The position numbers and the translations under genes were made by a program. DNA of 44,461 nucleotides from a virus. Each line of letters starts with the position of its first letter. Positions within the stretch are counted from its first letter, which is position 1. Positions 25,286 through 38,556 of this stretch are shown here, piece after piece. The notes under the pieces are model-generated. The model saw only the letters and a program-made list of their open reading frames with translations. It did no database searches and was not told the origin of the DNA. Location of the stretch: the IMG/VR virus record IMGVR_UViG_3300043539_001200, positions 1-44,461 of that record; one strand, given 5' to 3'.

Positions 25286-25307
25286 ATTTCCTCCTTCCAT
25301 CATGTAT

Positions 25308-25333
25308 AACGCGGGAGGCCGTCCGAATATTCC
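25308..25333 (-). promoter_or_regulatory. ECF-type promoter, GGAAT-N18-GTT
   Basis: GGAAT (25329-25333) and GTT (25308-25310) are 18 bases apart on the minus strand, just upstream of the ribosome site of the 450-aa gene. It is one of 19 such sites in this window. Confidence 0.75.
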
Positions 25334-25346
25334 CGGCAGAAAAAAC

Positions 25347-25706
25347 TCAGCCCTTCACACCCTCAGCGATCTTTTCCAGGCCGCGAGCCTCGCGGTTCTG
25401 TTGGCGCGATCCTTTCAGAAGCCGTTCTGCCTCCCTGGAGTCCAGGCTCTCCCGCGACTGTTTAAGATCGACGTAGGCACCCCAACGCAGGATGTCTGCC
25501 GCGTGATCGCATCTGTCGCAGACAAGCTCAATGCCCCAGGCCGGAATGTCCCAGTCGCCCCGCACGGGAACGGATTTCACTAGCTCGTCGGCCTGGGCCT
25601 CCGTCAGCCCGTAGTCCTCGCGCAGTTCGTCTTCCTCGTAAGCGACGATAGATAGCTGGTAGCGAATCTCGTCGGCCTGGGCCTTGGTGAGTTTCATTCT
25701 CATCAC
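25347..25706 (-). CDS. hypothetical protein with CxxC pair (119 aa)
   Basis: A 119-aa, mostly helical protein. GTG at 25706 overlaps the upstream stop; ATGs at 25703 and 25697 are alternatives. The N-terminal half is acidic (DEIRYQLSIVAYEEDELRED); the middle has CDRCDH, a possible half zinc site; the end is Glu/Arg-rich and coiled-coil-like. The last codons run into the next promoter element. The function is unknown. Confidence 0.65.
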   Translation of the reverse strand: MMRMKLTKAQADEIRYQLSIVAYEEDELREDYGLTEAQADELVKSVPVRGDWDIPAWGIELVCDRCDHAADILRWGAYVDLKQSRESLDSREAERLLKGSRQQNREARGLEKIAEGVKG

Positions 25707-25873
25707 CAGGCACCCAGGCAGTCCACCGGCAACGCTTCGGTGCTGCCGTCCTCGTAGCGCAGGACGGCCCAGAGAAAGATGCGGTTGAACTCTTCCCGAC
25801 CATGGAGGTCGATGATGATGCCGGGTTGATCCCAGCTTCCAAGGACGATCTTGCCAACGCGGACGGCTATCAC
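25703..25873 (-). CDS. small hypothetical protein (56 aa)
   Basis: A 56-aa frame from GTG 25873, overlapping the previous stop (GTGA), to a TGA that overlaps the next start. The sequence (MIAVRVGKIVLGSWDQPGIIIDL) is beta-rich, with a conserved-looking LWAVLRYEDGSTEALPVDCLGAW end. Such SH3-like mini-proteins are common in phage accessory regions. Good coupling on both sides supports it. The function is unknown. Confidence 0.65.
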   Translation of the reverse strand: MIAVRVGKIVLGSWDQPGIIIDLHGREEFNRIFLWAVLRYEDGSTEALPVDCLGAW

Positions 25874-26172
25874 GGGAGTAATCCTTTCGGTGGACGCTTG
25901 ATGCGCTTGAGGCCGATAGACAGGGAATTCACCATGTAGATGACCCCGCCGTCAGCTTGCCTCTCAGCACGGGCTGGGCCGGGACGCACCTGGACTTTGT
26001 AGATCGCCAGGACTTCGTCGCCGTCACGAACGATAAGGTACTGGCCGCTGTTGCGGCCATCGAACTGGACAAACTCCACGGCATCCGACGCGACGGCAAT
26101 GCCGTCTGTACGGGCCAGGGTGGCGACGGCCTTGGCCGTCATCGACGCTATGTGTGCTGGGCTGGGAGCCAT
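25870..26172 (-). CDS. hypothetical protein (100 aa)
   Basis: The start is ATG 26172, directly after the standard GGAGG element; seven upstream codons are the ribosome site. The 100-aa product has an Ala-rich N-terminal helix, a beta hairpin (QYLIVRDGDEVLAIYKVQVRPG) and a basic C-terminus (LKRIKRPPKG). It is the first gene of a three-gene unit (26172 to 25347). No family is recognised. Confidence 0.65.
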   Translation of the reverse strand: MAPSPAHIASMTAKAVATLARTDGIAVASDAVEFVQFDGRNSGQYLIVRDGDEVLAIYKVQVRPGPARAERQADGGVIYMVNSLSIGLKRIKRPPKGLLP

Positions 26173-26194
26173 ATTTCCTCCTTCCATCATGTAT

Positions 26195-26220
26195 AACGCC
26201 CCGGCACCGAAATTTATTCC
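26195..26220 (-). promoter_or_regulatory. ECF-type promoter, GGAAT-N18-GTT
   Basis: GGAAT (26216-26220) and GTT (26195-26197) are 18 bases apart. The -35 element overlaps the stop codon of the upstream gene. It drives the 26172 gene. Confidence 0.75.
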
Positions 26221-26666
26221 TCCGACCTAACCAAAGTCTTTTGCAGCTTGATTTTGTCCCCCAGATCGCCTAGGGGAACATTTCCGGCACCGTCGCACAC
26301 CATGCACCGTAGGTCATCTTTTACGATGCCTAGGGCCTCCTGAGCGGCCTTTATGGAGCATTCCTGCGCCCAGGCATAATCACCGACCCTCTCAATGAGG
26401 TCAGCCTCGTCGCCGTCACCGCCGCAGCGTGGGCAGGTCGCCAGGCCGTCCAGGGCCAGCTTAAGGTCATCGACCACGGAGATGACCCCGCAGGCACAGA
26501 TGCCGACGCTATGGTCGCACGCAAGGTCTTCGCTCAGGTACTCGACAATGGCCTCCAGCAGGCTGCGTGGCACGTCGGAATCCGACCCCTCTGGTGCAGG
26601 GTAGGGGTTCATCACCTGAAGCGCATGCGCCAGCATGGTGTTGGGTATGGCCATCCATTCGCTCAT
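26214..26666 (-). CDS. Cys-rich zinc-binding protein (150 aa)
   Basis: A 150-aa acidic protein, ATG at 26666 behind AAGGAGG. Several Cys pairs are present: CDHSVGICAC, CPRCGGDGDE and CMVCDGAG. The CPRCGGDG and CMVCDGAG pair resembles the zinc module of DnaJ-type proteins. A helical region lies between. It could be a small chaperone-like or protein-binding factor, but no J-domain is present. Its stop is part of the next promoter. Confidence 0.65.
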   Translation of the reverse strand: MSEWMAIPNTMLAHALQVMNPYPAPEGSDSDVPRSLLEAIVEYLSEDLACDHSVGICACGVISVVDDLKLALDGLATCPRCGGDGDEADLIERVGDYAWAQECSIKAAQEALGIVKDDLRCMVCDGAGNVPLGDLGDKIKLQKTLVRSEE

Positions 26667-26675
26667 ACTTCCTCC

Positions 26676-26828
26676 TTAATCGTTCATTCCGTGGAACTTG
26701 CACATCCAGTTCCAGCCGTCCTTGCACTGACAGGTGGGCTGCGGCAACAGGTTCGTGCAACTGCACTCCCGGCAGTAGTTGTGGATGTTGTGCTTCTCAG
26801 CGGCGTGGCCGCAGCACCCGCAGGGCAT
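26676..26828 (-). CDS. small Cys/His-rich protein (50 aa)
   Basis: A 50-aa frame from ATG 26828 (TGATG overlap, GAAGGGAA upstream) to 26676. It has nine Cys and several His: CGCCGH, CRECSC, CQC and CKFHG. It probably binds one or two zinc ions. It sits between two other small genes of the same unit. The frame is convincing because of its composition and coupling. The function is unknown. Confidence 0.65.
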   Translation of the reverse strand: MPCGCCGHAAEKHNIHNYCRECSCTNLLPQPTCQCKDGWNWMCKFHGMND

Positions 26829-27103
26829 CAGGTTCCCTTCTTCTTCTTCAGCACCGACTCAGCGGCAAAGATGGCATCGAATATTTCTTGCCGCTGCGGC
26901 TCAGGCAGGCCACCCAGCAGGACAGCGGCCAGGTGGGTGGCACCGCGCAACCGCTCAAGACGGTGGCTCAACTGAGTCTTGCTGTCGCGGCGAGTCCGGA
27001 CATAGCCAAGGGAAGTAGTCACCGCGTCATCACGCAGGCACTTTGCCTGGCGCAGAAGGCTTTCCAGAATGTCGCTGGTCTTCACCGTTTCGGGCCTAGA
27101 CAT
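26828..27103 (-). CDS. small basic helical protein (91 aa)
   Basis: The start is ATG 27103 behind GAGGAAGAAGG; an earlier in-frame ATG at 27121 lies within the upstream gene. The 91-aa protein is helical and basic, with TKTSDILESLLRQAKC-type and RDSKTQLSHRLERLRG segments and a Lys-rich end. It overlaps the upstream 30-aa gene by 8 bases. No family is recognised; a nucleic-acid- or protein-binding role is possible. Confidence 0.6.
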   Translation of the reverse strand: MSRPETVKTSDILESLLRQAKCLRDDAVTTSLGYVRTRRDSKTQLSHRLERLRGATHLAAVLLGGLPEPQRQEIFDAIFAAESVLKKKKGT

Positions 27104-27188
27104 ACGCACCTTCTTCCTCAAGAATTCCTTGCAGAATCCGCTCAGCAGCTTCGATGACCTCCAGGGCCTCCAAGTCGAACAAGTCCAT
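27096..27188 (-). CDS. small acidic peptide (30 aa)
   Basis: A 30-aa frame (MDLFDLEALEVIEAAERILQ) from ATG 27188 with GGGAGG six bases upstream. It is the gene placed directly behind an ECF-type promoter, which strongly supports translation. It is amphipathic and acidic and overlaps the next start by 8 bases. It may be a leader or a small regulatory peptide. Confidence 0.55.
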   Translation of the reverse strand: MDLFDLEALEVIEAAERILQGILEEEGAYV

Positions 27189-27213
27189 CTTGTTCCTCCC
27201 TTCCATCTAGTAC

Positions 27214-27239
27214 AACAAACCGGCAGAAAAACTTATTTC
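27214..27239 (-). promoter_or_regulatory. ECF-type promoter, GAAAT-N18-GTT
   Basis: GAAAT (27235-27239, one mismatch to GGAAT) and GTT (27214-27216) are 18 bases apart. It precedes the unit 27188, 27103, 26828, 26666. Confidence 0.65.
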
Positions 27240-27510: not shown

Positions 27511-27795
27511 TCAGTACCCGTAGTGGGCACGCTCTTCGTCGTCATAGGGGTAGTGCTGAGGGCCTTCGCACAGGTGAGCCGACAGGCCGTGTTCGCAAGT
27601 GGGATAAAGCTTTTCGATGATCCGCTTGTATCCCTGGTCGATGAATTCGCCTTCGACTTCGTCAATGGCGTGGGTCATTCCCTTCCGCTCAAAAAACGCC
27701 AGGGCATGATCTTCGGCATTTTCGCCGTAGAACCGGGTGACGTAGCTGTGGCCGGTGCTGCACACCGTCATCAGCAGGGCAATGGGCTTGCTCAC
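27511..27795 (-). CDS. hypothetical protein with C-terminal His/Cys patch (94 aa)
   Basis: A 94-aa protein from GTG 27795, with GGAGG 4-5 bases upstream and a GTGA overlap. It has a hydrophobic opening (MSKPIALLMTVCSTGHSYVTRF) that is too short for a clear membrane segment, and a CEHGLSAHLCEGPQHYP patch that could bind a metal. Such small proteins are frequent in actinobacteriophage accessory regions. No function is assigned. Confidence 0.65.
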   Translation of the reverse strand: MSKPIALLMTVCSTGHSYVTRFYGENAEDHALAFFERKGMTHAIDEVEGEFIDQGYKRIIEKLYPTCEHGLSAHLCEGPQHYPYDDEERAHYGY

Positions 27796-27983
27796 GAATC
27801 CTCCTTCGGGGAAATGGGCCAGGTCGTGCCATCTTGGTCAATAAGATTGACCCTGGCGTAGTCCCGGCTGTCGGCCAAAAGTTGCGCGTACTGACCGGCA
27901 CGGCTGTTGTTGGCAAAGTGTGCCTCTGCGCTGGGGTCGAACTTGCCGGGGAGAACTTCGGCGGTGACGATGATCTTTGGCAT
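27792..27983 (-). CDS. hypothetical protein (63 aa)
   Basis: A 63-aa protein, ATG at 27983 behind AAGGAGG and an ECF-type promoter. It begins MPKIIVTAEVLPGKFDPSAEA, followed by FANNSRAGQYAQLLADSRDYARV. It is soluble, without a known motif. It heads a three-gene unit and is coupled to the next gene. Confidence 0.65.
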   Translation of the reverse strand: MPKIIVTAEVLPGKFDPSAEAHFANNSRAGQYAQLLADSRDYARVNLIDQDGTTWPISPKEDS

Positions 27984-28004
27984 TTTCCTCCTTCCATCTG
28001 GTAC

Positions 28005-28030
28005 AACAGAAAAAACGAGAGAATTATTCC
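28005..28030 (-). promoter_or_regulatory. ECF-type promoter, GGAAT-N18-GTT
   Basis: GGAAT (28026-28030) and GTT (28005-28007) are 18 bases apart, immediately after the stop of the upstream gene. The spacer holds a run of T (TTTTTT) on the minus strand. Confidence 0.75.
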
Positions 28031-28387
28031 TCAGAGCCTGTAGGCATGTTCCCGGCCCTCGCTGGCTTTGCCGCCTGCGGCCTCGCGAGCCAGTTCCAGG
28101 GTCAGCGACTCAGCGGCCTCTTTGAACGTCTCGTAGGCACCGGGAGAGTCACCGAATGCGTACTCGCCAGCCTCGTTGTCCCAGATGTGCCAGCGGGTGT
28201 AGTAATGCTCGCCGTCGCCTTCGCAGTAGTACCCAGGCAGTCCACGCTTGCCGCGCACCGGGTGCGGGTTGTCACAGGTGGTCAGGAAGTCGTCCTGAGA
28301 AGTGACCTCGTAGCGCCCGTCCTCAGTGAGGTAGATGCCGTTGGGCTGGCGCACCAGCGGGGTGCCGTACTTGCGAATCGTGGTCAT
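28031..28387 (-). CDS. hypothetical protein (118 aa)
   Basis: The start is ATG 28387 (MTTIRKYGTPLVRQPNGIYL), placed behind the conserved GGAGCGAA element. The 118-aa protein is beta-rich in the first half, with Tyr/Trp-rich stretches (YYCEGDGEHYYTRWHIWDN), and helical at the end (ESLTLELAREAAGG). It is a single-gene unit between two promoters. No family is recognised. Confidence 0.65.
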   Translation of the reverse strand: MTTIRKYGTPLVRQPNGIYLTEDGRYEVTSQDDFLTTCDNPHPVRGKRGLPGYYCEGDGEHYYTRWHIWDNEAGEYAFGDSPGAYETFKEAAESLTLELAREAAGGKASEGREHAYRL

Positions 28388-28408
28388 TTCGCTCCTTCCA
28401 TCACGCAT

Positions 28409-28435
28409 AACGCAAAAAGCCGGGGGAGTTATTCC
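28409..28435 (-). promoter_or_regulatory. ECF-type promoter, GGAAT-N19-GTT
   Basis: GGAAT (28431-28435) and GTT (28409-28411) are 19 bases apart, one of two sites with 19 rather than 18. The -35 element lies in the terminator stem. Confidence 0.65.
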
Positions 28436-28441
28436 CCCGGC
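28419..28441 (-). terminator. Rho-independent terminator overlapping a promoter
   Basis: GCCGGGGGA and its complement form a stem of about 9-10 bp, followed on the minus strand by CTTTTTGCG. It ends the transcript of the 28820 gene while carrying the -35 element of the next promoter. Confidence 0.75.
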
Positions 28442-28945: not shown

Positions 28946-29119
28946 TCATCCGTAGCTTGCCACCTCTTTGCGCTTCTCAGAGGCCCGATTGCGCTTGCCG
29001 GGGTACTTGTAGGCGCGAGCTTTGTTCGCGCTCCTGGTGGTGTGCTGGCCGGGTGAACGGCCCTGTTCTGTGCGTTCGCGTCGGCGGATAGCCTCAGCGG
29101 CATGGTCCGGCTTGATCAC
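28946..29119 (-). CDS. small very basic protein (57 aa)
   Basis: A 57-aa frame from GTG 29119, a GTGA overlap with the upstream stop. It is strongly basic (AIRRRERTEQGRSPGQHTTRS, then YKYPGKRNRASEKRKE). Its composition suggests nucleic-acid binding. It is coupled to the 77-aa gene before it. No known domain is visible. Confidence 0.6.
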   Translation of the reverse strand: MIKPDHAAEAIRRRERTEQGRSPGQHTTRSANKARAYKYPGKRNRASEKRKEVASYG

Positions 29120-29349
29120 GGCATATCCTCTTCTCTGGCCAGCAGTCGGCTGATGTCGGAGGGAATCGGCGTCCCGCCACAGGGGCAGAAGCTGGCGTAA
29201 GCCGCTCCGGAGTCCGGACAGCAGGCATTAGCCATGAACTCATCCCACCATTCCTCGTAGGTCATCAGGTCGTCGTCAGTGACCGGCTGCCCGAAATCCG
29301 TTGGGCGCGTGTCAATGTCGGACTCAGTGATGTGGTCCGGATCGCTCAT
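29116..29349 (-). CDS. small acidic Cys-containing protein (77 aa)
   Basis: A 77-aa acidic protein, ATG at 29349 behind GGGAGG. It holds the cluster CCPDSGAAYASFCPCGG, a possible zinc site, and many Asp/Glu (DIDTRPTDFGQPVTDDDLM). It heads a unit driven by an ECF-type promoter and precedes the basic 57-aa protein, so the two oppositely charged products might interact. Confidence 0.6.
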   Translation of the reverse strand: MSDPDHITESDIDTRPTDFGQPVTDDDLMTYEEWWDEFMANACCPDSGAAYASFCPCGGTPIPSDISRLLAREEDMP

Positions 29350-29372: not shown

Positions 29373-29398
29373 AACCAAACCTTCCGGAAAACTATTCC
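29373..29398 (-). promoter_or_regulatory. ECF-type promoter, GGAAT-N18-GTT
   Basis: GGAAT (29394-29398) and GTT (29373-29375) are 18 bases apart. The -35 element overlaps the stop of the 29721 gene. Confidence 0.7.
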
Positions 29399-29721
29399 GG
29401 CCCTCTTTTCTCTTCCTCCACGATGGCGTCTAGCTGGTGCTGGTTCAGGGTGGCAATGATGTGTTCAGGGCCGAACTTAACCTCGTCGCCATGCTTGACC
29501 GACACGGCACGATGGGGGGCGTTCGACAGGGTTCCGGTGATACTGTCGCCGTCCCTGGCAGTGATCAACACCCACATGCGCTCAGCACCGTCGTCGCTGC
29601 TGAAGATCAGCTTGGCGTAGTCTCCCGGCCCAACGGCAGCCTTGTCGGCATCCGAAGGGAGCAGGAAGCTTTCCGGACTGGCCTTGTTTCGATCAAGACC
29701 GCTGATTAGCTTGTAGCTCAT
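29392..29721 (-). CDS. DUF2314-like protein (109 aa)
   Basis: A 109-aa protein, ATG at 29721 overlapping the upstream stop, with AAGGAGG before it. The middle (GDYAKLIFSSDDGAERMWVLITARDGDSITGTL) resembles DUF2314, a small beta-barrel family with a GERMWV-type motif. No enzymatic activity is known to me. Phage members are common. Confidence 0.65.
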   Translation of the reverse strand: MSYKLISGLDRNKASPESFLLPSDADKAAVGPGDYAKLIFSSDDGAERMWVLITARDGDSITGTLSNAPHRAVSVKHGDEVKFGPEHIIATLNQHQLDAIVEEEKRGPE

Positions 29722-30353
29722 GCCGCCTCCTTTTTCTTCAGGCCCTCCAGGGCCTTTTCGATGATTGCTTGTGCCGCAGGGCTTTTCGGCACCACGCGCA
29801 CGATGTCCTCGCTGTAGCTGGGGAACACGATGTCGGCACCCTCGTAGGCCTCACGGTAGTGGCCGTCCTCGCCAGGACCGACATCCAGCAGCTTGAACAC
29901 GGCCTTGTCCTCGCTATCCAGCACTGACCGGATCAGCTTGAGCCAGATCGGGCCACCGACTGCGGTGCCAAGGTCACCAGTTGCCTTGCGCGGCAACAGG
30001 ATTCCCGGCTCCGCTGGCTTGAGGTATGCGGCCAAGTAGAAGTACCCACCGGCCAGCCGCCCGACCACGGCAATATCGCCGTCCTCGTAGATGTCCACGG
30101 GGTCGTCGGGTCGCAGACCCTTTGCCAGCTTGGCTTCGGCCAGCGTGACCACTTCTGCCCCGCCGATTGCCTTGAGCTTTTCGATCAGCTTGGCCTTCGG
30201 CTCATCCTCACCGGCAAAGCTCACACGGTCGTGCGGCACATCCAGCGAGACACCGTAGCCGTAGCCATTGACGATAGCTCGCGCTCCCCAGGCTGCCTGG
30301 GCACCCTCCGGAACCCCGGCACCGTAACCGAACGCTAACTGTAGCTTGCTCAT
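29718..30353 (-). CDS. hypothetical protein (211 aa)
   Basis: A 211-aa protein, ATG at 30353 behind the conserved GGGAGAAATAA site. The N-terminus is Gly/Ala/Tyr-rich (FGYGAGVPEGAQAAWGARAIVNGYGYG), the middle is beta-rich (VDIYEDGDIAVVGRLAGGYF) and the end is helical and basic. There is no catalytic signature or Cys cluster. It is coupled to the DUF2314-like gene. The function is unknown. Confidence 0.65.
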   Translation of the reverse strand: MSKLQLAFGYGAGVPEGAQAAWGARAIVNGYGYGVSLDVPHDRVSFAGEDEPKAKLIEKLKAIGGAEVVTLAEAKLAKGLRPDDPVDIYEDGDIAVVGRLAGGYFYLAAYLKPAEPGILLPRKATGDLGTAVGGPIWLKLIRSVLDSEDKAVFKLLDVGPGEDGHYREAYEGADIVFPSYSEDIVRVVPKSPAAQAIIEKALEGLKKKEAA

Positions 30354-30377: not shown

Positions 30378-30403
30378 AACCAGATTTTACCGGCGGAAAT
30401 TCC
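30378..30403 (-). promoter_or_regulatory. ECF-type promoter, GGAAT-N18-GTT
   Basis: GGAAT (30399-30403) and GTT (30378-30380) are 18 bases apart, upstream of the 211-aa gene. The -35 element begins at the stop of the preceding gene. Confidence 0.75.
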
Positions 30404-30882
30404 TACGCCGCCTTCCTTCCGAAACGAAGCTCTCCCGCTGGCCATGGTTCGTAGGACTTCAAGTCCAAGAACCAGACGGCCCGGTTGTCATAGTCGGCGC
30501 TGTCAAGCAGGACACCAAAGAACGCACCGTCGAGTCCGTAGAACAGCAGGCCAACCTTGCCCTTGGGCACTAGGTCGCTCCAGTCACCAAAGGCACCGGA
30601 GGACTTGAGGTCGCCCTTGGCGAGACGGGCATTGTCAGCGTCATAGCTGGCCTGCGACTCAGCGGCTCCGTCCCGGCAGCGGTCGCCGTGGACACCGCGC
30701 AGGCCACCGTGGTGCTTGTAGCAGCCAGCGCACAGGGCCGGTGGGCGGCAATACGGCATGGTGTTGCCGCCGTCGAGAATGCTGGCCTTGACCTTGTGTG
30801 GGCACTTGCGCTTACGAACGCCGCCGGAAATGGAACAGCCGTCGCAAACCAGACGGCCACGATAATCGAAACAGTAACCCAT
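30403..30882 (-). CDS. zinc-ribbon protein (159 aa)
   Basis: The start is ATG 30882 (MGYCFDYRGRLVCDGCS); eight upstream codons are the ribosome site. The 159-aa protein has CDGC, a KCPHK site and CRPPALCAGCYKHHGG, making one or two zinc ribbons in the first 75 residues. A C-terminal beta-rich domain follows (KGKVGLLFYGLDGAFFGVLL). Similar Cys-rich proteins recur in actinobacteriophages without known function. It lies directly downstream of ku but has its own promoter. Confidence 0.65.
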   Translation of the reverse strand: MGYCFDYRGRLVCDGCSISGGVRKRKCPHKVKASILDGGNTMPYCRPPALCAGCYKHHGGLRGVHGDRCRDGAAESQASYDADNARLAKGDLKSSGAFGDWSDLVPKGKVGLLFYGLDGAFFGVLLDSADYDNRAVWFLDLKSYEPWPAGELRFGRKAA

Positions 30883-30904: not shown

Positions 30905-30930
30905 AACAGAAAAACCGGGGGAATTATTCC
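30905..30930 (-). promoter_or_regulatory. ECF-type promoter, GGAAT-N18-GTT
   Basis: GGAAT (30926-30930) and GTT (30905-30907) are 18 bases apart, upstream of the 159-aa gene. The -35 element lies inside the terminator that ends ku. Confidence 0.8.
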
Positions 30931-30935
30931 CCCGG
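30915..30935 (-). terminator. Rho-independent terminator after ku, overlapping a promoter
   Basis: CCGGGGGAA and TTCCCCCGG form a 9-bp stem with a 3-base loop, followed on the minus strand by TTTTT. The hairpin contains the -35 GGAAT of the next promoter. Confidence 0.85.
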
Positions 30936-30940
30936 CCTCC

Positions 30941-31717
30941 CTACGCCGCCTTTTTCTTCTTCTTGGCTATGGTCGCCTCCAGCGCCGCCAGCAGGTCATC
31001 CACGGCAGGCTCCGGACCAGCCGGGTGGGCGACGAACTCGCCGCCAGCGGCCTTGGTTTCGATGAATTCTTCGACCCGTCCGGTGTAGACATCGACGTGA
31101 TCCTCCGCGACGAACGGCTCAGTCATCGACTCAACCAGCGCCCGTGCCAACTCCGACTCCTTGGGCTTGAGCTTGACCGGCTTTTCCAGAATGGCGAATT
31201 GTGGTTCGCGAATCTCGTCGGGCCAGGCAATGGTGTGGGTGACCAGCACGTCGCCGCTCACCCGCAGCACACCCAGGCTCTCCCGCCCACGCAGGGCAAA
31301 CTTGACCAGGGCAACCTTCTTGGTTTCCGAAAGTGCTTCGTGCAGAAGGGCATAGCCCTTGACACCGGCCTTGTCGGGCGCGAGGTAGTACGCGGACTCG
31401 TAGCTGACCGGGTCAACCTCGTCGGCACCCATGAAGTGCAGCACCTCAACCGCCGGAACCTGTTCGCCCTCAAGGGCTTTGATTTCTTCAGGTGCGGCAA
31501 TAACGAGCGTGCCGTCAGCGGCCTCCGCGCCCTTGGCAACGTCGGCCCACTCGACCTCGCCCTCGCAGTCCTTGCAGACGCGCAGCATGCCGATAGAGCC
31601 GCCGCACCCGGCGTGGTAGAGCTTGAAGCTGAAGTCGTGAGACTCGACGGCCTTGTAGAGCTTGACCGGCACGTTGAGCAGGCCACACGACAAGCTGGTG
31701 GTTTTGATCGCTCTCAT
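30941..31717 (-). CDS. ku: Ku-family DNA end-binding protein
   Basis: A 258-aa protein of normal bacterial Ku length, ATG at 31717 behind AAGGAGG. Family signatures are clear: GLLNVPVKLYKAVESHDFSF, a zinc-ribbon-like CGG...RVCKDCEGEVEW, YYLAPDK, ALVKFALRGRESLGVLR and the HTIAWPDEIR segment, with a Lys-rich tail. Ku dimers encircle broken DNA ends and recruit LigD for non-homologous end joining. Phage Ku proteins are known from mycobacteriophages Omega and Corndog, where Ku with host LigD helps circularise the genome. No ligase is seen in this window, so the host enzyme would be needed. It is a single-gene unit with an ECF-type promoter and a terminator. Confidence 0.95.
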   Translation of the reverse strand: MRAIKTTSLSCGLLNVPVKLYKAVESHDFSFKLYHAGCGGSIGMLRVCKDCEGEVEWADVAKGAEAADGTLVIAAPEEIKALEGEQVPAVEVLHFMGADEVDPVSYESAYYLAPDKAGVKGYALLHEALSETKKVALVKFALRGRESLGVLRVSGDVLVTHTIAWPDEIREPQFAILEKPVKLKPKESELARALVESMTEPFVAEDHVDVYTGRVEEFIETKAAGGEFVAHPAGPEPAVDDLLAALEATIAKKKKKAA

Positions 31718-31740: not shown

Positions 31741-31766
31741 AACGCCGGGACCGGGCGAATTATTCC
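31741..31766 (-). promoter_or_regulatory. ECF-type promoter of ku, GGAAT-N18-GTT
   Basis: GGAAT (31762-31766) and GTT (31741-31743, preceded by C) are 18 bases apart, 23 bases before the ku start codon. It is a near-perfect SigH/SigR-type match. Confidence 0.8.
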
Positions 31767-32362: not shown

Positions 32363-32544
32363 TGGACCTCCACCTTCACCTCGACCTCGTCGCCCAGCAG
32401 GAACTTCAGTTCCTCAGGCAGTGCGGCAGCCACCTTGTCGGCGGCGTCCTTGCTGAGTCCGCTGACGAAAACCATCCCGTAGGGGGAACCGGCGACAGCC
32501 GGAACCTTCTCGCTAACAACGGAATACACAACGCTGTAACTCAT
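32359..32544 (-). CDS. small hypothetical protein (61 aa)
   Basis: The start is ATG 32544 (MSYSVVYSVVSEKVPAVAG) behind the conserved GGGAGAAAA site; the longer upstream frame runs through the promoter and is not used. The 61-aa protein has strands, a short helix (LSKDAADKVAAALPEEL) and an acidic strand at the end. It is the first gene of its unit. The function is unknown. Confidence 0.65.
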   Translation of the reverse strand: MSYSVVYSVVSEKVPAVAGSPYGMVFVSGLSKDAADKVAAALPEELKFLLGDEVEVKVEVQ

Positions 32545-32568: not shown

Positions 32569-32594
32569 AACCGAAAAACCTTGAGAACTATTCC
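32569..32594 (-). promoter_or_regulatory. ECF-type promoter, GGAAT-N18-GTT
   Basis: GGAAT (32590-32594) and GTT (32569-32571) are 18 bases apart, upstream of the 61-aa gene. The -35 element overlaps the stop of the preceding gene. Confidence 0.75.
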
Positions 32595-32917
32595 ACGTCT
32601 TCCAGCCGTGCGAACCAGGCGAATGCCGCCGGGTTACGCAGCAACTGTTCGCCGGTATCAATGTCGAACAGGTACGGAGAATCACCGTGCATGGTGCCGT
32701 CCCACCAGGCAGTCCTCACCTCGCCGGTCAGCAACTGGAACTGGTAAGCGGTGCCCCGGCCACAGGCGCGGCCATCCACCGGCACACCCAGGAGCGTGCC
32801 GACGAGGGCACCACGGCCACGGTCACTCCGCACTGCGCGGCTGTAAGAAATCACCCGTGGGTTCCACGTCAGGTCCGTCGCCAGAGGCGCGTCGTCCCAT
32901 CCGGTGCGCTGCTTCAT
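32588..32917 (-). CDS. hypothetical protein (109 aa)
   Basis: The start is ATG 32917 (MKQRTGWDDAPLATDLTWNP) behind the conserved ribosome site. The 109-aa protein is Trp-, Gly- and Arg-rich with a probable beta fold (TAYQFQLLTGEVRTAWWDGTMHG). It is a single-gene unit with its own promoter. No family is recognised. Confidence 0.65.
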   Translation of the reverse strand: MKQRTGWDDAPLATDLTWNPRVISYSRAVRSDRGRGALVGTLLGVPVDGRACGRGTAYQFQLLTGEVRTAWWDGTMHGDSPYLFDIDTGEQLLRNPAAFAWFARLEDVE

Positions 32918-32939: not shown

Positions 32940-32965
32940 AACAGAAAAACCGGGGGAATTATTCC
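32940..32965 (-). promoter_or_regulatory. ECF-type promoter, GGAAT-N18-GTT
   Basis: GGAAT (32961-32965) and GTT (32940-32942) are 18 bases apart. The cassette is nearly identical to the one at 30.9 kb. Confidence 0.8.
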
Positions 32966-32970
32966 CCCGG
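32950..32970 (-). terminator. Rho-independent terminator overlapping a promoter
   Basis: The same 9-bp stem, 3-base loop and TTTTT tail as the terminator after ku, here ending the 308-aa gene. The hairpin carries the -35 of the next promoter. Confidence 0.85.
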
Positions 32971-32979: not shown

Positions 32980-33906
32980 TCAGATCAGGCCCTCTTCCTG
33001 AGCGATCCGGCGATAGCTGGCGTGCCAGTTGGCCGGGTCAGCGGGGTTGTGCCCGTTGAGGTAGATCGGCTGTCCCAGCGCGATCTTGATCTGCTTGATG
33101 GTTTCTCGCCGGAACTTCTTCTGCGCCTTGGCCTTTAGCTCTTCCCACAGTTCGTCAGCAGGCACGCCGCGCTTGTCGGCCACCAGAGAGGCGATCTTGA
33201 AGGCGAAGTCCAGCTTGCTGTCGTCCTCGTACCGGAAGTAGCAGTCCAGTTCCCAGGCGATTTCGTTGGTGGCTCCCCGCTCGGTCTTGAACAGCACCTT
33301 GCCGGTGACCGGGTCGATGATCGCCTGGGCGTCCTTGGCGGCTCGCTTGGCCTCACGCTCAGCCCGTGCGGCCTGCTTGGCTTCCTCGTCCTTGGTGAAG
33401 AGCGCGGTGGGCCGGTTCAGCACGTAGGCCGGGGCACTGGGGTAGCAGATGGTGCAGGCACGCTCACCGGCAGCCTCGACAATTTCCGCCTCGTCGTGGC
33501 CGGAAAGCTTTGTCACCCAGTGGAATTGGGTGGTGGGGTAGCAGGTGTGGCACCGCTGGCTGGAGTGGACGTGGCCGGTGCCGCTGGTCACCACCAGGAA
33601 GGCACGGGTCCAGCCGCCCCGCCGGGAGAATTCCTCCTGGTAGGGGGCCATTTCGTCGCTCTTGGCCGATTCGATGGCCTCTTGCTCCTGGGCCAGAGCC
33701 TCAAGCTCTGCCGCTCGCTCCAGGTCAGGCCGGGGAGTGCTGGTGCGGGTGCGCCAGTCATAGTGGACGTAGTTGCGAGCCTTGTCAGCGGCCTGCCAGA
33801 GGTCGATCTTGCGGATCATGGCGGCGTAGCGCTCGTAGTCCAGGTCAGCCAGGATGGTGTCGATTTCGACCGGGGTCGCAATCCTGAGGTCAAGTGTGGC
33901 GGTCAT
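32980..33906 (-). CDS. conserved phage protein with Cys/His metal sites (308 aa)
   Basis: A 308-aa protein, ATG at 33906 behind GGGAGAAAA. Two related metal-binding stretches are visible: HVHSSQRCHTCYP and CTICYPSAP, about 35 residues apart. A charged coiled region follows (AARAEREAKRAAKDAQ), then a C-terminal basic domain (KAKAQKKFRRETIKQIKIALG). Proteins with the doubled CYP motif are common in actinobacteriophages. DNA or RNA binding is plausible, but no function is known. Confidence 0.7.
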   Translation of the reverse strand: MTATLDLRIATPVEIDTILADLDYERYAAMIRKIDLWQAADKARNYVHYDWRTRTSTPRPDLERAAELEALAQEQEAIESAKSDEMAPYQEEFSRRGGWTRAFLVVTSGTGHVHSSQRCHTCYPTTQFHWVTKLSGHDEAEIVEAAGERACTICYPSAPAYVLNRPTALFTKDEEAKQAARAEREAKRAAKDAQAIIDPVTGKVLFKTERGATNEIAWELDCYFRYEDDSKLDFAFKIASLVADKRGVPADELWEELKAKAQKKFRRETIKQIKIALGQPIYLNGHNPADPANWHASYRRIAQEEGLI

Positions 33907-33929: not shown

Positions 33930-33955
33930 AACGCCACCGCGAACAAATTTATTCC
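33930..33955 (-). promoter_or_regulatory. ECF-type promoter, GGAAT-N18-GTT
   Basis: GGAAT (33951-33955) and GTT (33930-33932, preceded by C) are 18 bases apart, upstream of the 308-aa gene. Confidence 0.75.
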
Positions 33956-34245: not shown

Positions 34246-34271
34246 AACGGTTTTTTCGGACGGTTTATTCC
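34246..34271 (-). promoter_or_regulatory. ECF-type promoter, GGAAT-N18-GTT
   Basis: GGAAT (34267-34271) and GTT (34246-34248, preceded by C) are 18 bases apart. It stands before the apparently broken short gene. Confidence 0.7.
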
Positions 34272-34796: not shown

Positions 34797-34819
34797 GGGC
34801 CGGTTAGTCCAACCGGCCC
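34797..34819 (-). repeat. hairpin around the stop codon of the 205-aa gene
   Basis: GGGCCGGTT and AACCGGCCC form a perfect 9-bp stem with a 5-base loop that includes the TAA stop. There is no U tract. It may slow or couple translation, or act as a weak terminator. Confidence 0.45.
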
Positions 34820-35421
34820 ATGCTGTAGGCCCGAATTCCGGCCTCTTGCAACACATTTGCGAATGCGGCGGCGTGGGCCATCTTCTTCTCGTAGCTCTGG
34901 CCGTATTCGCCAGCCAGCGAAACCATCACGCCGCCGTAGTAGTCACTGGAGCGAGCCAGGCCCAGCTTCTTCAGGTGACGGGCAAAGCTGCCGTTGCCAG
35001 GCTTGATGATTGTCCAGGCCTGGCCGCAGACACCGCTCATCACGGGCGCGTAGGCCCTGACGATGCGGCTGTTGTCGTCCAGCGGGTGTTCGCGCTCCAC
35101 CACATGCATGGGCTGCGGAGTGGTGGCCTCAGCCGCGATCCGACCGGCCTCCTGGGCACGGGCGAACAGGGCACGGGCCTCAGCCTCGCTGAACTTCGGG
35201 CCGGTGTTCGTGGCCTTCGGCTCAGGCACCGACACGATTTCCAGGCAGAACTGGTCGAACGTCTCGACCGGAGTCTTGACCCGGCCACCCAAACGAGTGC
35301 GCGAGTAGACCTTGCCGTTGGTGATCGACGTGACGGTCAGCGCCACGGGGTTGCCGTCGATGTCCTTGCGACGAGCGTGCAGCCAGACCGTTCCCTTGGC
35401 CGGGAGCGTGGTGGTTGTCAA
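34804..35421 (-). CDS. hypothetical protein (205 aa)
   Basis: A 205-aa protein from TTG 35421, with GGAG 6 bases upstream. The N-terminus is beta-rich and basic (KGTVWLHARRKDIDGNPVALTVTSITNGKVYSR). The middle is helical, and the end is Gly/Ala-rich (YYGGVMVSLAGEYGQSYEKKMAHAAAFANVL). No catalytic or zinc motif is visible. The leader has an extra GGGGC-AACC-GCCCC hairpin inserted between the usual element and the ribosome site. The function is unknown. Confidence 0.65.
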   Translation of the reverse strand: MTTTTLPAKGTVWLHARRKDIDGNPVALTVTSITNGKVYSRTRLGGRVKTPVETFDQFCLEIVSVPEPKATNTGPKFSEAEARALFARAQEAGRIAAEATTPQPMHVVEREHPLDDNSRIVRAYAPVMSGVCGQAWTIIKPGNGSFARHLKKLGLARSSDYYGGVMVSLAGEYGQSYEKKMAHAAAFANVLQEAGIRAYSMGRLD

Positions 35422-35462
35422 TGCCGTCTCCTTCCTGGGGCGGTTGCCCCTCCATCATGTTC

Positions 35463-35488
35463 AACAGAAAAACCGCCGGGATTATTCC
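35463..35488 (-). promoter_or_regulatory. ECF-type promoter, GGAAT-N18-GTT
   Basis: GGAAT (35484-35488) and GTT (35463-35465) are 18 bases apart, upstream of the TTG-started 205-aa gene. Confidence 0.75.
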
Positions 35489-35826
35489 TAGACCGTGTAC
35501 AGCCCCAGGCTGTAGCTGTTGATCGGCTCCAGGTAGGTGCCCTTGGGCATCTTGATCGGCTGCTGCTTGGCCTTCTCAGCGGCCTGCTCGCTGGGCATGA
35601 ACCCCTTGAGGTCATGGTATAGCTCTTCGTCAAAACCGCCCAGGCTGGCCCGTATAGCCCACTCAAATGGGCCTTCCTCCCAGACGATGGCATTGCGGGT
35701 GGTGCTGTACCAGCCGTGGTATTCCTCGACAAGCTGGGGTCCACCATATTCCCCCGGCCTGTAGCCGTAGAACTTACGGATGGCACGGAGGGCGCTCTGC
35801 GCCTGTCTCTTCGTTGCTCTCGCCAT
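35488..35826 (-). CDS. hypothetical protein (112 aa)
   Basis: The start is ATG 35826 behind GGGAGAAG. The 112-aa protein has a basic N-terminal helix (MARATKRQAQSALRAIRKFYG), a Gly/Tyr-rich middle and a helical Lys/Gln-rich segment before a final strand pair. Similar 110-115-aa proteins beginning with a basic helix occur in many actinobacteriophages. It is the first leftward gene next to the divergent control region. Confidence 0.65.
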   Translation of the reverse strand: MARATKRQAQSALRAIRKFYGYRPGEYGGPQLVEEYHGWYSTTRNAIVWEEGPFEWAIRASLGGFDEELYHDLKGFMPSEQAAEKAKQQPIKMPKGTYLEPINSYSLGLYTV

Positions 35827-35848
35827 TCTTCTCCCTTCCATTTCGTAA

Positions 35849-35874
35849 AACGATGCCGCCCCAAAAGTTATTCC
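35849..35874 (-). promoter_or_regulatory. ECF-type promoter, GGAAT-N18-GTT
   Basis: GGAAT (35870-35874) and GTT (35849-35851, preceded by C) are 18 bases apart. The -35 side abuts the first operator-like repeat. Confidence 0.75.
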
Positions 35875-35943: not shown

Positions 35944-35969
35944 GGAATAAAAAACCGCAGATCAGCGTT
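35944..35969 (+). promoter_or_regulatory. ECF-type promoter (rightward), GGAAT-N18-GTT
   Basis: GGAAT (35944-35948) and GTT (35967-35969, preceded by C) are 18 bases apart on the plus strand, upstream of the phosphatase gene. This shows the element is used on both strands. Confidence 0.75.
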
Positions 35970-36002
35970 GTAATGGATGGAGGGGAAAGGAGGTGGTGCG
36001 GA

Positions 36003-36488
36003 GTGCAGAGGTTGAAGCCTCTAGCGGTGATCATCGACATCGACGGCACCCTGGCCGACGTGCATGGCATCAGCCATCACATCCGGAAAGTTCCTGGGCA
36101 CAAGCACAAGGACTTCTCCGAATTCCACAAGCGGTCGCCTCACGTCGAACCGAAACAGCAAGCGCTCGACTACATCAATGATGCGCTGGAGGCCGGGATG
36201 GTCCTGATCGTCCTGACCGCACGGCGAGAGCAATGGCTGAAGGAGTCCAAGCAGTTCGTGGATCGGGTGATCCAGGTGCCCTACGAGTTACACATGCGGC
36301 CCGACGATGACTTCGGAAACGATATCCAGTTCAAGAAACATCAACTCAAGTACCTGCGTCGGCACTATGACGTGCGCGGAGCCATTGAGGACAACCCGCA
36401 GGTTGCGGCCATGTTTGAGAGCCAGGGGGTGCCGGTGGAACTGGTGCCGGATGGCCGGTGGGCCGACCTGGAGGAAATAAACCAGTGA
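36003..36488 (+). CDS. HAD-type phosphatase, polynucleotide 3'-phosphatase-like
   Basis: The start is GTG 36003 with AAAGGAGG 9 bases upstream. The 161-aa protein has HAD motif I DIDGTLAD, motif II VLTARREQW (Thr), a Lys-containing stretch (RPDDDFGNDIQFKKHQLKYL) and motif IV-like AIEDNPQV. The layout is that of the phosphatase half of phage polynucleotide kinase/phosphatases, which removes 3'-phosphates from damaged DNA or RNA ends. No kinase domain is present. Its pairing with Ku in one promoter family suggests a role in end repair, but a general nucleotidase is possible. Confidence 0.8.
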   Translation: MQRLKPLAVIIDIDGTLADVHGISHHIRKVPGHKHKDFSEFHKRSPHVEPKQQALDYINDALEAGMVLIVLTARREQWLKESKQFVDRVIQVPYELHMRPDDDFGNDIQFKKHQLKYLRRHYDVRGAIEDNPQVAAMFESQGVPVELVPDGRWADLEEINQ

Positions 36489-36499
36489 AAAGCCTTGTT
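36474..36499 (+). promoter_or_regulatory. ECF-type promoter (rightward), GAAAT-N18-GTT
   Basis: GAAAT (36474-36478) and GTT (36497-36499) are 18 bases apart, followed by CAGAGTGGAGG, which resembles the conserved downstream part of the other sites. It precedes the 83-aa gene. Confidence 0.6.
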
Positions 36500-36522
36500 T
36501 CACAGAGTGGAGGTGGTGATAG

Positions 36523-36774
36523 GTGAAAATCCGGATACCGTCCCGGTTCTATTACGATCACAAAGAACGTGATCTGGATACGCCGGTCAACTACAGCAAG
36601 GCAAAAAGCTATGTTGTCATCGACTCTGATGACCCAGCCCTGCCCGAATTGCTCAGTGACGCAGAGCATTACGCTTCCGACACCGGGGGTGAGGGAGGTT
36701 TCTTTTCCACAGGAAACGGTGGCTTGGTGCTGTCGGCACGCGCCACGATCAAAGCAATACGAGAGGGAAAATAA
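36523..36774 (+). CDS. hypothetical protein (83 aa)
   Basis: An 83-aa protein from GTG 36523 with GGAGG upstream. It begins MKIRIPSRFYYDHKERDLDTP, has a beta-rich core (KSYVVIDSDDPALPELLSDAEHY) and a Gly-rich end (FFSTGNGGLVLSARATIKA). It abuts the next gene. Small proteins of this style are common in actinobacteriophages. The function is unknown. Confidence 0.7.
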   Translation: MKIRIPSRFYYDHKERDLDTPVNYSKAKSYVVIDSDDPALPELLSDAEHYASDTGGEGGFFSTGNGGLVLSARATIKAIREGK

Positions 36775-37028: not shown

Positions 37029-37361
37029 GTGACTATCGTTCGCCTCATCGTTAGTGGCAAGACCTATTTCGATTGCCTTGATCCGCTCTGCACCGGGGTG
37101 CCGGAAGAGATTGGCCTGCTGCCTTATGATCGTGCAGCCAAATCCATCAGGCGGGGTCGCGGCTACCAAATAGACTATGGTCTGATTCCGCTAGACATGG
37201 CTGAAGACGTTCTGGATCACCTGGACACCATGGGATACCTACGGACCAACGGCATTGATCCGGATGACTACGAATCACGGGCCGCTGGCCGCGCCATCAT
37301 CAAGGACCATGCACGTCTTGCTGCGGCCATCAAAGAAGCAGGAATAAACCCTCAGCAATAG
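37029..37361 (+). CDS. hypothetical protein (110 aa)
   Basis: A 110-aa protein from GTG 37029 with GAGAGGAAG upstream. It begins MTIVRLIVSGKTYFDCLDPL and has mixed strand/helix structure, with AEDVLDHLDTMGYLRTNGIDPDDYESRAAGR in the second half. There is no zinc or membrane signature. It lies in the rightward unit before the DUF2786 gene. No family is recognised. Confidence 0.7.
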   Translation: MTIVRLIVSGKTYFDCLDPLCTGVPEEIGLLPYDRAAKSIRRGRGYQIDYGLIPLDMAEDVLDHLDTMGYLRTNGIDPDDYESRAAGRAIIKDHARLAAAIKEAGINPQQ

Positions 37362-37367
37362 TTTGTT
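37341..37367 (+). promoter_or_regulatory. ECF-type promoter (rightward), GGAAT-N19-GTT
   Basis: GGAAT (37341-37345) and GTT (37365-37367) are 19 bases apart, inside and just past the end of the 110-aa gene, followed by GAACATG as at other sites. It precedes the DUF2786 gene. Confidence 0.55.
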
Positions 37368-37372
37368 GAACA

Positions 37373-37392
37373 TGTTGTAGGACAAAGAAACA
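37373..37392 (+). repeat. 20-bp direct repeat, copy 2
   Basis: Identical to 36994-37013 and placed equally before the next ribosome site (GGAAGGAAG). A diverged 16-base relative, GTTGTAAGACAAAGAA, occurs at 2564-2579. Confidence 0.55.
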
Positions 37393-37405
37393 GGAAGGAA
37401 GAAAG

Positions 37406-38464
37406 TTGACATCACCCGGCGACAGAACGCTTGAGCGCATTGCCGCTCTGCTCAATCAGGCAGAGGGCACCGACAATCCGGCAGAGCGCGAGGCCTTTAT
37501 GAAGAAGGCGCAGACGCTGGCCACGATCCACAGCATCGACCTGGCGCGTGCCCGTTCGGTGACCCGCAGCAAAGAGAACAGCACGCCGATTCAGCGCACC
37601 GTGAAGGTGGGCGAGCGCCGCGAGCATGGCCGACTGGTCCGCATCGACCTCTACCTGGGTATCGCCAGGGCTAACGATGTCAAATGCACGATCAGCCATG
37701 ACCGGACGCGGGTCTACGGCCACGGCTTTGAAGAGGACATCAATACCGTTGAGGCACTTTACGCTTCGCTGGTGGTGCAGATGGCCAGTGAGAGTGAGCA
37801 GTTCTTGGCTAAGGACGAATGGCGCAATGACACTGTCTACCGCAAGAAGCGGGTCAAGGTGGAGAGCTACTACGGCGGCACCTACAGCGAGGACCAGTGG
37901 GGACACTTCCCGGTCAGCAAGCAGACCGCCCGTTCAGAATTCCAGGCGGCATTCTCTTCGCAGATCGAATCCCGGCTCCTGGTCGCCAAGCGCGAGGCCG
38001 AAACCAAGATCATTGACGAGGAAAAGCGCCGGAAGGCACAGCCTCACTTGGACGAATTCGGTTCTCTCTCAGCGCAGTTCAAGGCCTGGTTTGAGGTGGA
38101 GAACTTCCACAAGTTCGGTGAGGACGTGGAGTTCGACCGTGAACTGACGGAGTTGCTGCTGGATTCCGACAGTGACTACGCCAAAGAGGCCGTGACTGCC
38201 TACAAGGAATACCTTGCAGGACAACAGGATTCCGACCCCGGCACCGCGCTGGTTCTGGTTCAGAAGGCTGAGGAAATCGACACCTTCTACCGGAAGCGGA
38301 ACCCGCACCTGTTCAAGAACAACCGGCGGCGGGGAGGCTACGGCGGCTACCAGTCCAATGCCTTCTCCAACACCGCACGGTCAGCGGGACGGGAGGCCGG
38401 TCGCAACGCCCGAATCGGCAGCCAGACCGGAATTGGCGGTCAGCGCAAGGCAATCGGCGGGTGA
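37406..38464 (+). CDS. DUF2786-domain protein (352 aa)
   Basis: A 352-aa protein from TTG 37406 with GGAAGGAAG upstream. Residues about 8-50 (RIAALLNQAEGTDNPAEREA...AQTLATIHSIDLA) match DUF2786, a helical domain found in phage and bacterial proteins. The central part is charged and helical; the last 50 residues are Arg/Gly-rich (RRRGGYGGYQSN), suggesting nucleic-acid binding. DUF2786 genes often neighbour metallopeptidase genes in phages, as here. The function of the family is not established. Confidence 0.85.
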   Translation: MTSPGDRTLERIAALLNQAEGTDNPAEREAFMKKAQTLATIHSIDLARARSVTRSKENSTPIQRTVKVGERREHGRLVRIDLYLGIARANDVKCTISHDRTRVYGHGFEEDINTVEALYASLVVQMASESEQFLAKDEWRNDTVYRKKRVKVESYYGGTYSEDQWGHFPVSKQTARSEFQAAFSSQIESRLLVAKREAETKIIDEEKRRKAQPHLDEFGSLSAQFKAWFEVENFHKFGEDVEFDRELTELLLDSDSDYAKEAVTAYKEYLAGQQDSDPGTALVLVQKAEEIDTFYRKRNPHLFKNNRRRGGYGGYQSNAFSNTARSAGREAGRNARIGSQTGIGGQRKAIGG

Positions 38465-38475
38465 GCCAGGGGAGG

Positions 38476-38500
38476 GCCGGGGCTGTCCACTCGCCCCGGC
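38476..38500 (+). repeat. GC-rich hairpin after the DUF2786 gene
   Basis: GCCGGGGC and GCCCCGGC form a perfect 8-bp stem with a 9-base loop, 12 bases past the stop. The tail is not U-rich until AACTTTTTGG further on. It may be a weak terminator. Confidence 0.45.
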
Positions 38501-38510
38501 TCGCCCCTCA

Positions 38511-38536
38511 GAAATAATCCCGGCAACTTTTTGGTT
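38511..38536 (+). promoter_or_regulatory. ECF-type promoter (rightward), GAAAT-N18-GTT
   Basis: GAAAT (38511-38515) and GTT (38534-38536) are 18 bases apart, followed by the conserved CACTAGACGGAAGGAG segment with the ribosome site. It precedes the 163-aa gene. Confidence 0.65.
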
Positions 38537-38556
38537 GCACTAGACGGAAGGAGAAA

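What the first reader, a model, noticed from the sequence alone, without database searches (positions are those of the whole stretch)
25300..38540. A phage-wide ECF-type promoter family, GGAAT-N18-GTT
I find 19 sites between 25.3 and 38.5 kb, 15 leftward and 4 rightward, in which GGAAT (GAAAT at three) is followed by exactly 18 bases (19 at two) and GTT, then about 20 bases later a GGAAGGGAG-type ribosome site and a start codon. The fixed spacing, on both strands and at heads of gene groups, is what promoters show. The pattern equals the consensus I recall for SigR of Streptomyces and, closely, SigH of mycobacteria. The accessory genes, including ku and the phosphatase, may thus form one regulon run by a host thiol/heat-stress sigma factor, or by a phage ECF sigma factor outside the window. 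The late block (1-23.9 kb) shows no such site that I noticed.
Basis: partly seen in the sequence, partly recalled or inferred. Interest (0 to 1): 0.9.

Follow-up and report, generated by a model that had tools for sequence, protein, structure and literature searches.

The report
Stress-sigma-type promoters across mycobacteriophage accessory genes
The accessory genes of this phage, and of its relatives including the well-studied cluster C1 mycobacteriophages, are each preceded by a copy of the promoter that host bacteria use for thiol and heat stress genes, which suggests that these viruses run many genes on a host stress-response sigma factor.

Summary
In detail: 19 sites (15 leftward, 4 rightward) of G[G/A]AAT-N18/19-GTT lie in 25.3-38.5 kb. 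At gap 18 there are 18 copies against about 0.4 in shuffled sequence. GGAAT/GTT is recovered when sites are chosen only by the downstream box. The window is a fragment of a cluster-C-like myovirus (capsid 87% identical to phage HyRo). The element recurs in HyRo, LRRHood and Blubba (Bixzunavirus), in two other ~150 kb relatives (26 sites each, almost all on one strand) and in an unrelated 181 kb phage. There a start codon lies exactly 9 nt after GTT at half of the sites. This fixes +1 and puts GGAAT at -35 to -31 and GTT at -12 to -10, the published SigH coordinates. The promoter follows its gene between phages although gene order is scrambled. Close relatives without the motif carry sigmaA-type promoters in a similar start-associated cassette. 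No ECF sigma gene was found in the motif-bearing relatives of this phage that were examined. Best explanation: SigH/SigR-type ECF promoters read by a host ECF sigma factor. That they are promoters is near certain from sequence; the identity of the sigma factor is inferred. No report was found in the open-access papers searched.

The parts
25308..25333 (-). Promoter element GGAAT-N18-GTT; predicted +1 at 25298; drives gene 23933-25285 (450 aa, PHROG 2319)
   Evidence: orthologue in G001 has a site at 24258 and in C714 at 85260
26195..26220 (-). Promoter element; predicted +1 at 26185; gene 25870-26172
   Evidence: G001 site 57368 upstream of orthologue
27214..27239 (-). Promoter element (GAAAT variant); predicted +1 at 27204; short ORF 27096-27188
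28005..28030 (-). Promoter element; predicted +1 at 27995; two-gene unit 27792-27983 then 27511 onward
   Evidence: G001 site 22987 at matching distance
28409..28435 (-). Promoter element, gap 19; predicted +1 at 28399; gene 28031-28387; -35 lies in a terminator-like hairpin (28423-28438)
29373..29398 (-). Promoter element; predicted +1 at 29363; gene 29116-29349
   Evidence: G001 site 23662, C714 site 139486
30378..30403 (-). Promoter element; predicted +1 at 30368; gene 29718-30353
30905..30930 (-). Promoter element; predicted +1 at 30895; gene 30403-30882; -35 in terminator-like hairpin 30918-30933 followed by TTTTT
   Evidence: C714 site 146779
31741..31766 (-). Promoter element; predicted +1 at 31731; Ku gene 30941-31717
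   Evidence: G001 site 80800, C714 site 141632 ahead of their Ku orthologues
32569..32594 (-). Promoter element; predicted +1 at 32559; gene 32359-32544 then 32102
   Evidence: G001 site 66372
32940..32965 (-). Promoter element; predicted +1 at 32930; gene 32588-32917; -35 in terminator-like hairpin 32953-32968 followed by TTTTT
33930..33955 (-). Promoter element; predicted +1 at 33920; gene 32980-33906 (308 aa)
   Evidence: G001 site 105898, C714 site 16893
34246..34271 (-). Promoter element; predicted +1 at 34236; followed only by very short ORFs
35463..35488 (-). Promoter element; predicted +1 at 35453; leader with a hairpin close to the 5' end, gene 34804-35421 (TTG start)
   Evidence: G001 site 79497 ahead of orthologue
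35849..35874 (-). Promoter element; predicted +1 at 35839; gene 35488-35826
35944..35969 (+). Promoter element, divergent from 35874; predicted +1 at 35979; HAD/PNKP-type phosphatase gene ending at 36488
   Evidence: G001 site 77893, C714 site 137685
36474..36499 (+). Promoter element (GAAAT variant); predicted +1 at 36509; gene 36523-36774
   Evidence: C714 site 18888 at a comparable distance
37341..37367 (+). Promoter element, gap 19; predicted +1 at 37377; gene 37406-38464 (DUF2786)
   Evidence: G001 site 109416
38511..38536 (+). Promoter element (GAAAT variant); predicted +1 at 38546; gene 38557-39048

Best explanation
The 19 elements are promoters of the SigH/SigR class of ECF sigma factors: -35 GGAATA, 16-bp spacer, -10 (C/T/G)GTT, an A at -7, and initiation at a G 10 nt after GTT (T at -1). 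Each drives one gene or a short operon of the accessory arm. Transcripts here begin 5'-GGAAGG(G)AG, so the ribosome site is at the very 5' end and most leaders are 11-16 nt. The phage carries no sigma factor for them. RNA polymerase holding a host SigH/SigR-type ECF sigma (the one released from its redox-sensitive anti-sigma by thiol or heat stress) reads them, so these genes are switched on with, or by, the host stress response to infection. Shown from sequence: element, spacing, position at gene heads, conservation with the gene, absence of a recognisable ECF sigma gene in relatives. Inferred: that it is transcribed, the start site, the identity of the sigma factor, and the timing.
For: (1) Statistics: 18 gap-18 sites against 0.4 expected; top unbiased pair. 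(2) The downstream box alone recovers GGAAT/GAAAT and GTT in 15 of 16 places. (3) Consensus equals published ones: M. tuberculosis SigH (G/T)GGAA(C/T)A-16-(C/G)GTT, S. coelicolor SigR GGGAAT(G/C)-16-(C/G)GTTG, C. glutamicum SigH gGGAAta-16..19-(C/T)GTTgaa (PMC3489674). GGAAT is the SigH-only form, SigE needing GGAAC (PMC10012870); GGAAC-N18-GTT is absent from the region. (4) In unrelated phage G002 an ATG or GTG lies exactly 9 nt after GTT at 13 of 26 sites (scored on the first start codon of an ORF of at least 40 aa, so approximate). If those mRNAs are leaderless, GGAAT is at -35..-31 and GTT at -12..-10, the published numbering. With that offset +1 is G at all 19 window sites, and predicted leaders of G001 and C714 form stems starting at or near +1 (mean -9.1 and -9.8 kcal/mol against -5.4 shuffled). 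(5) Promoter travels with gene: about 10 of 12 (G001) and 8 of 10 (C714) orthologues carry a site at a comparable distance although the genes are scattered over 23-110 kb in G001. (6) Relatives without the motif have sigmaA cores in a similar cassette: SCentae TTGAC-N17-GTATA (10 seen, 0 expected), Stormageddon TTGC-N19-TATA (10, 0.2). (7) No ECF sigma gene in HyRo, Blubba, G001 or C714 by HMM. (8) No excess of sigma70-type sites in the arm.
Against: No transcript data. The host of this phage is not known; a mycolic-acid-bearing host is inferred from the homologue of HyRo lysin B at 17181-18194 and the M. smegmatis hosts of relatives. An ECF sigma other than SigH with the same -35/-10 preference cannot be excluded. 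In HyRo the motif runs GTTATACT, which contains a sigmaA-like TATACT, so C1 promoters might be read by sigmaA too. A sigma factor too divergent for the HMMs could exist. A lytic phage that depends on a stress sigma would be limited in unstressed cells unless infection releases it.
Confidence: 0.72

Rival explanations
1. Same promoters, but read with a phage-encoded sigma factor or sigma-like appropriator that HMMs do not recognise or that lies in the missing part of the genome.
For: The window is a fragment of a larger genome (relatives are 150-155 kb). G001 has a 131-aa protein with a weak sigma region-4 match (Sigma70_r4_2, E 1.4e-5, 1.3e-4). G003, which has a small set of similar sites, encodes a protein with a weak full-length sigma match.
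Against: TIGR02937 finds no ECF sigma gene in HyRo, Blubba, G001 or C714, and PF04542 none in G001. The region-4-like protein is also present in Myrna, SCentae and Settecandela, which lack the motif, so it does not track with it. No plausible sigma gene is shared by G001 and HyRo to the exclusion of motif-less relatives. The phage sites match the host SigH consensus, whereas a private sigma factor would be free to diverge.
Confidence: 0.15
2. Dual promoters read mainly by sigmaA through an AT-rich stretch just after GTT (TATACT in HyRo, TTATAG in C714), with GGAAT serving as a site for an activator.
For: One of HyRo's strongest pairs is GAAT-N20-TATA, and relatives such as SCentae use sigmaA-type cores in similar cassettes.
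Against: In the window the region after GTT is mostly GTAC, GAAC, GTAT or ATAC and does not make a sigmaA -10, while GTT is invariant even when not selected for. The GGAAT to GTT spacing is rigid. The putative leaderless starts of G002 put GTT, not the later TATA, at -12..-10.
Confidence: 0.08
3. Not a promoter but a start-associated RNA or protein-binding element like the cluster K SAS/ESAS, acting at translation or as an operator.
For: It lies directly ahead of the start codon and includes the ribosome site in the window, as SAS does in cluster K (PMC3203893).
Against: In HyRo, G001 and C714 the ribosome site is separate and farther downstream while GGAAT-N18-GTT is kept. Conservation is in two asymmetric blocks about two turns apart with a free spacer. 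It equals a known promoter consensus.
Confidence: 0.04

Closest known systems
SigH-dependent promoters of Mycobacterium and Corynebacterium; SigR promoters of Streptomyces (redox-regulated ECF sigma with anti-sigma RshA/RsrA)
   Same: -35 GGAAT(A), 16-17 nt, (C/G/T)GTT, often followed by G, and the same -35/-10 numbering (PMC3489674, PMC10012870)
   Different: Here they are many copies in a virus, at the heads of phage accessory genes, each followed by a conserved T(-1)G(+1) start box and a ribosome site at the 5' end; no sigma gene is present in the window
Start-Associated Sequences (SAS/ESAS) of cluster K mycobacteriophages
   Same: Many near-identical copies directly upstream of start codons in a mycobacteriophage
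   Different: SAS is a 13-bp GGGATAGGAGCCC with predicted pairing to 16S rRNA, and ESAS is an inverted repeat; neither is GGAAT-N18-GTT, and TM4 has no copy of the present motif
SigmaA-type repeated promoters of related phages (Gordonia phages SCentae, Stormageddon)
   Same: Similar cassette: promoter core, start box, leader, ribosome site, repeated at accessory genes
   Different: Core is TTGAC-N17-GTATA or TTGC-N19-TATA instead of GGAAT-N18-GTT
Phage regulons driven by phage sigma factors (for example T4 gp55, SPO1 gp28; own knowledge)
   Same: A set of phage genes shares a non-standard promoter
   Different: No phage ECF sigma gene found; the consensus is that of a host sigma

Membership tests
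SigH/SigR-type ECF promoter | -35 GGAA(T/C) and -10 (C/G/T)GTT, about 16-19 bp apart | tested here: met
   published consensus
SigH/SigR-type ECF promoter | T at the fifth base of GGAAN (position -31) for SigH-only promoters rather than C (SigE-compatible) | tested here: met
   GGAAC-N18-GTT 0 copies in the region; GGAAT 15
SigH/SigR-type ECF promoter | Elements at -35 and -10 relative to a mapped transcript start | tested here: inconclusive
   Start inferred from putative leaderless genes in G002 and 5'-end hairpins in G001/C714; no 5' ends mapped
SigH/SigR-type ECF promoter | Transcription depends on SigH/SigR | not testable with these tools
   needs mutant or in vitro data
SigmaA promoter | TTGACA-17-TATAAT-like hexamers enriched upstream of the genes | tested here: not met
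   2 found, 2.7 expected by shuffling
Cluster K SAS | 13-bp GGGATAGGAGCCC upstream of the start codon | tested here: not met
   the box here is (A/G)TGGA(A/G)GG(G)AG, linked to GGAAT/GTT; definition from PMC3203893
Phage-sigma regulon | A sigma gene in the phage genome | tested here: not met
   window, HyRo, Blubba, G001 and C714 negative with TIGR02937; the window itself is a fragment

The most novel reading that the evidence does not exclude
A group of large lytic mycobacteriophages and at least one unrelated phage have put tens of accessory genes under the host's thiol/heat-stress ECF sigma factor, so that infection-induced stress (release of SigH from RshA) is the switch for the phage's own takeover and defence genes. 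Related phages have kept a similar gene cassette but swapped in a sigmaA core, so sigma choice is an evolvable module of the cassette.
Probability: 0.5. Interest if true: 0.82.

Novelty: new variant of a known kind. Interest (0 to 1): 0.68.

Why it matters
Cluster C1 phages are among the most often isolated mycobacteriophages (about 200 close relatives in the phage collection), yet I found no description of their promoters. If the reading is right, a host stress sigma factor sets expression of a large set of phage genes. That predicts that sigH/rshA genotype and oxidative or heat stress tune infection, gives exact start sites for tens of genes, and offers a natural set of ECF promoters. It also gives a clean example of promoter specificity being swapped inside conserved cassettes.

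Tried and rejected
A pattern scan of IMG/VR with the longer box gave one chance hit, L004, in a 30% GC contig. The Ku protein found no viral relatives with that tool. Searches for papers on phage use of ECF or SigH promoters gave nothing relevant. The weak sigma region-4 hit of G001 looked like a phage sigma factor but is conserved in motif-less relatives. I first took it for the gene next to the portal (window 13823-14167), which is DUF7245, not a sigma. The sigma-like protein of G003 (L087) has long spacing between its regions and looks like a group-3 rather than an ECF sigma (my reading), so it was not used as the cognate factor. A suspected frameshift after site 28030 is an ordinary two-gene unit. 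Accessions NC_004687, NC_004685, NC_004688, NC_001335 and NC_008206 are not held.
Full report
What the window is. The window is a whole IMG/VR record of 44,461 bases and probably a fragment. Its capsid is 87% identical to that of Mycobacterium phage HyRo (Ceeclamvirinae, Bixzunavirus; cluster C1) and 84-85% to Myrna and Gordonia phage SCentae. Read on the minus strand it runs terminase (40885-42978), WhiB (40033-40509), an accessory arm (39.5-23.9 kb) with Ku and a HAD/PNKP-type phosphatase, lysis genes, portal, and capsid. GC is 56.7%, lower than C1 phages (about 65%).

The observation. All 19 sites exist as described. The excess is confined to gaps 18-19, apart from a small gap-10 peak (5-6) that I attribute to a GTT inside the spacer. 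Without presupposing the motif, the most over-represented spaced pair of 4-mers in the window is AATA-N17-GTTG. Choosing places only by the downstream box (A/G)TGGA(A/G)GG returns 16, of which 15 carry the -35 and GTT at the same distance. Each site is followed by a ribosome site and, at 18 of 19, a plausible gene (27239 heads only a short ORF); 34271 is followed only by very short ORFs.

Relatives. HyRo has 18 forward sites and 1 reverse, LRRHood 17/2, Blubba 14/2, with 0 for the reversed control pattern. Two ~150 kb relatives found here, G001 (IMG/VR; 60% identical in the 456-aa protein) and C714 (a contig in a lake metagenome bin), have 26 forward sites at gap 18 against 1 reverse; shuffles, both strands, give 2.6 and 3.3. 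An unrelated 181 kb phage, G002, has 30 sites (3.4 expected). G003 has 8 (0.6 expected). Myrna, SCentae, Settecandela, TM4 and Giles have none; ScoobyDoobyDoo has one, Stormageddon three and Patience six scattered matches.

The promoter follows the gene. For about 12 window sites whose downstream gene has a clear homologue in G001, 10 homologues have a G001 site at a comparable distance. For C714 it is about 8 of 10. Some of these calls needed judgement about true gene starts. With a background of roughly one site per 8-9 genes (my gene-count estimate) this is improbable by chance (2e-8 and 4e-6). Yet the genes that are neighbours in the window are scattered from 23 to 110 kb in G001. The element is part of the gene cassette.

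Where transcription should start. In G002 an ATG or GTG lies exactly 9 nt after GTT at 13 of 26 sites, as expected for leaderless mRNAs. This sets +1 and places GGAAT at -35..-31 and GTT at -12..-10. The Corynebacterium study numbers the fifth base of GGAAN as -31 (PMC10012870). Applied to the window, +1 is G at all 19 sites, with T at -1 at nearly all, and most leaders are 11-16 nt beginning GGAAGG. In G001 and C714 the same offset puts +1 at GGAGGGG, and the predicted leaders fold into stems that start at or within a few nt of +1 (mean -9.1 and -9.8 kcal/mol, -5.4 when shuffled). HyRo leaders are unstructured. Two independent features therefore agree on +1.

Which sigma factor. Published consensuses are, for M. 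tuberculosis SigH, (G/T)GGAA(C/T)A-16-(C/G)GTT; for S. coelicolor SigR, GGGAAT(G/C)-16-(C/G)GTTG; for C. glutamicum SigH, gGGAAta-16..19-(C/T)GTTgaa (PMC3489674). SigE requires GGAAC whereas SigH takes GGAAN, most often GGAAT (PMC10012870). The region has 15 GGAAT and no GGAAC sites at gap 18. Sigma70-type sites are not enriched. No ECF sigma gene is found in the window, HyRo, Blubba, G001 or C714 with TIGR02937, nor in the window or G001 with PF04542. The one weak region-4 match in G001 is conserved in relatives without the motif. A host SigH-type sigma is therefore the simplest reader. This last step is inference.

Contrast with motif-less relatives. SCentae carries ten TTGAC-N17-GTATA and Stormageddon ten TTGC-N19-TATA elements (0 and 0.2 expected), followed by a similar start box, a leader often able to fold (by eye), a ribosome site, and ATG. 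Related phages thus use a similar start-associated cassette with a sigmaA core. This supports reading GGAAT-N18-GTT as the core promoter, and suggests that the sigma specificity of the cassette has been exchanged.

Extra anatomy in the window. At 28435, 30930 and 32965 the -35 element sits inside a terminator-like hairpin (GGGGGAATAATTCCCC and similar, followed by T-runs; -18.7 to -21.4 kcal/mol, also listed). The upstream transcript could end within the spacer of the next promoter. Over the whole region terminator-like sites are only mildly in excess (17 found, 12.1 expected), so this rests on those three.

Verdict. Promoters: near certain from sequence (about 0.95). ECF promoters of SigH/SigR specificity: very likely (about 0.88). 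Read by a host SigH-type sigma without a phage sigma: likely (0.72). I found no published description in the open-access papers searched, which do not include most subscription journals.

Noticed in passing
L010-L017 (G001) and L096-L103 (C714), predicted +1 to about +20 at most sites: Leaders begin GGAGGGG...CCCCTCC, a stem starting at or near the predicted +1 and followed by a separate ribosome site; possibly a 5'-end stabiliser. Not present in HyRo or in most window leaders.
   Followed up: partly
window 28423-28438, 30918-30933, 32953-32968 (-): Terminator-like hairpins whose loop and stem contain the -35 element of the next promoter, with a T-run in the spacer.
   Followed up: partly
L073-L079 (G003), 64.9-69.0 kb and 104-107 kb (-): GGAAT-N18-GTT sites of this 140 kb phage hold a palindrome TGACGGTCGTCA in the spacer, as an operator would; the phage also encodes a weak full-length sigma match (L087), which looks like group 3.
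   Followed up: no
L063-L072 (G002): An unrelated 181 kb tailed phage with a 2843-aa tape measure has 30 such sites on both strands, half with a start codon exactly 9 nt after GTT (putative leaderless genes).
   Followed up: partly
L030-L038 (Myrna), e.g. 4928, 52012, 56683, 134633: Myrna lacks the motif but has TTCTAGnnnnTAGAA palindromes just upstream of start codons.
   Followed up: no
G001:46429-46821 and homologues in C714, HyRo, Myrna, SCentae, Settecandela: A conserved 131-aa protein with a weak sigma region-4-like HTH, near recombination genes in HyRo.
   Followed up: partly
L094 / G006:C714: A 149.6 kb mycobacteriophage-like contig is binned in a genome labelled uncultured Gammaproteobacteria, probably a binning error.
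   Followed up: no
window 30941-31717 (-): Ku gene; a homologue also occurs in the unrelated phage G002 (29% identity, 140697-141527), which carries the same promoter class.
   Followed up: no
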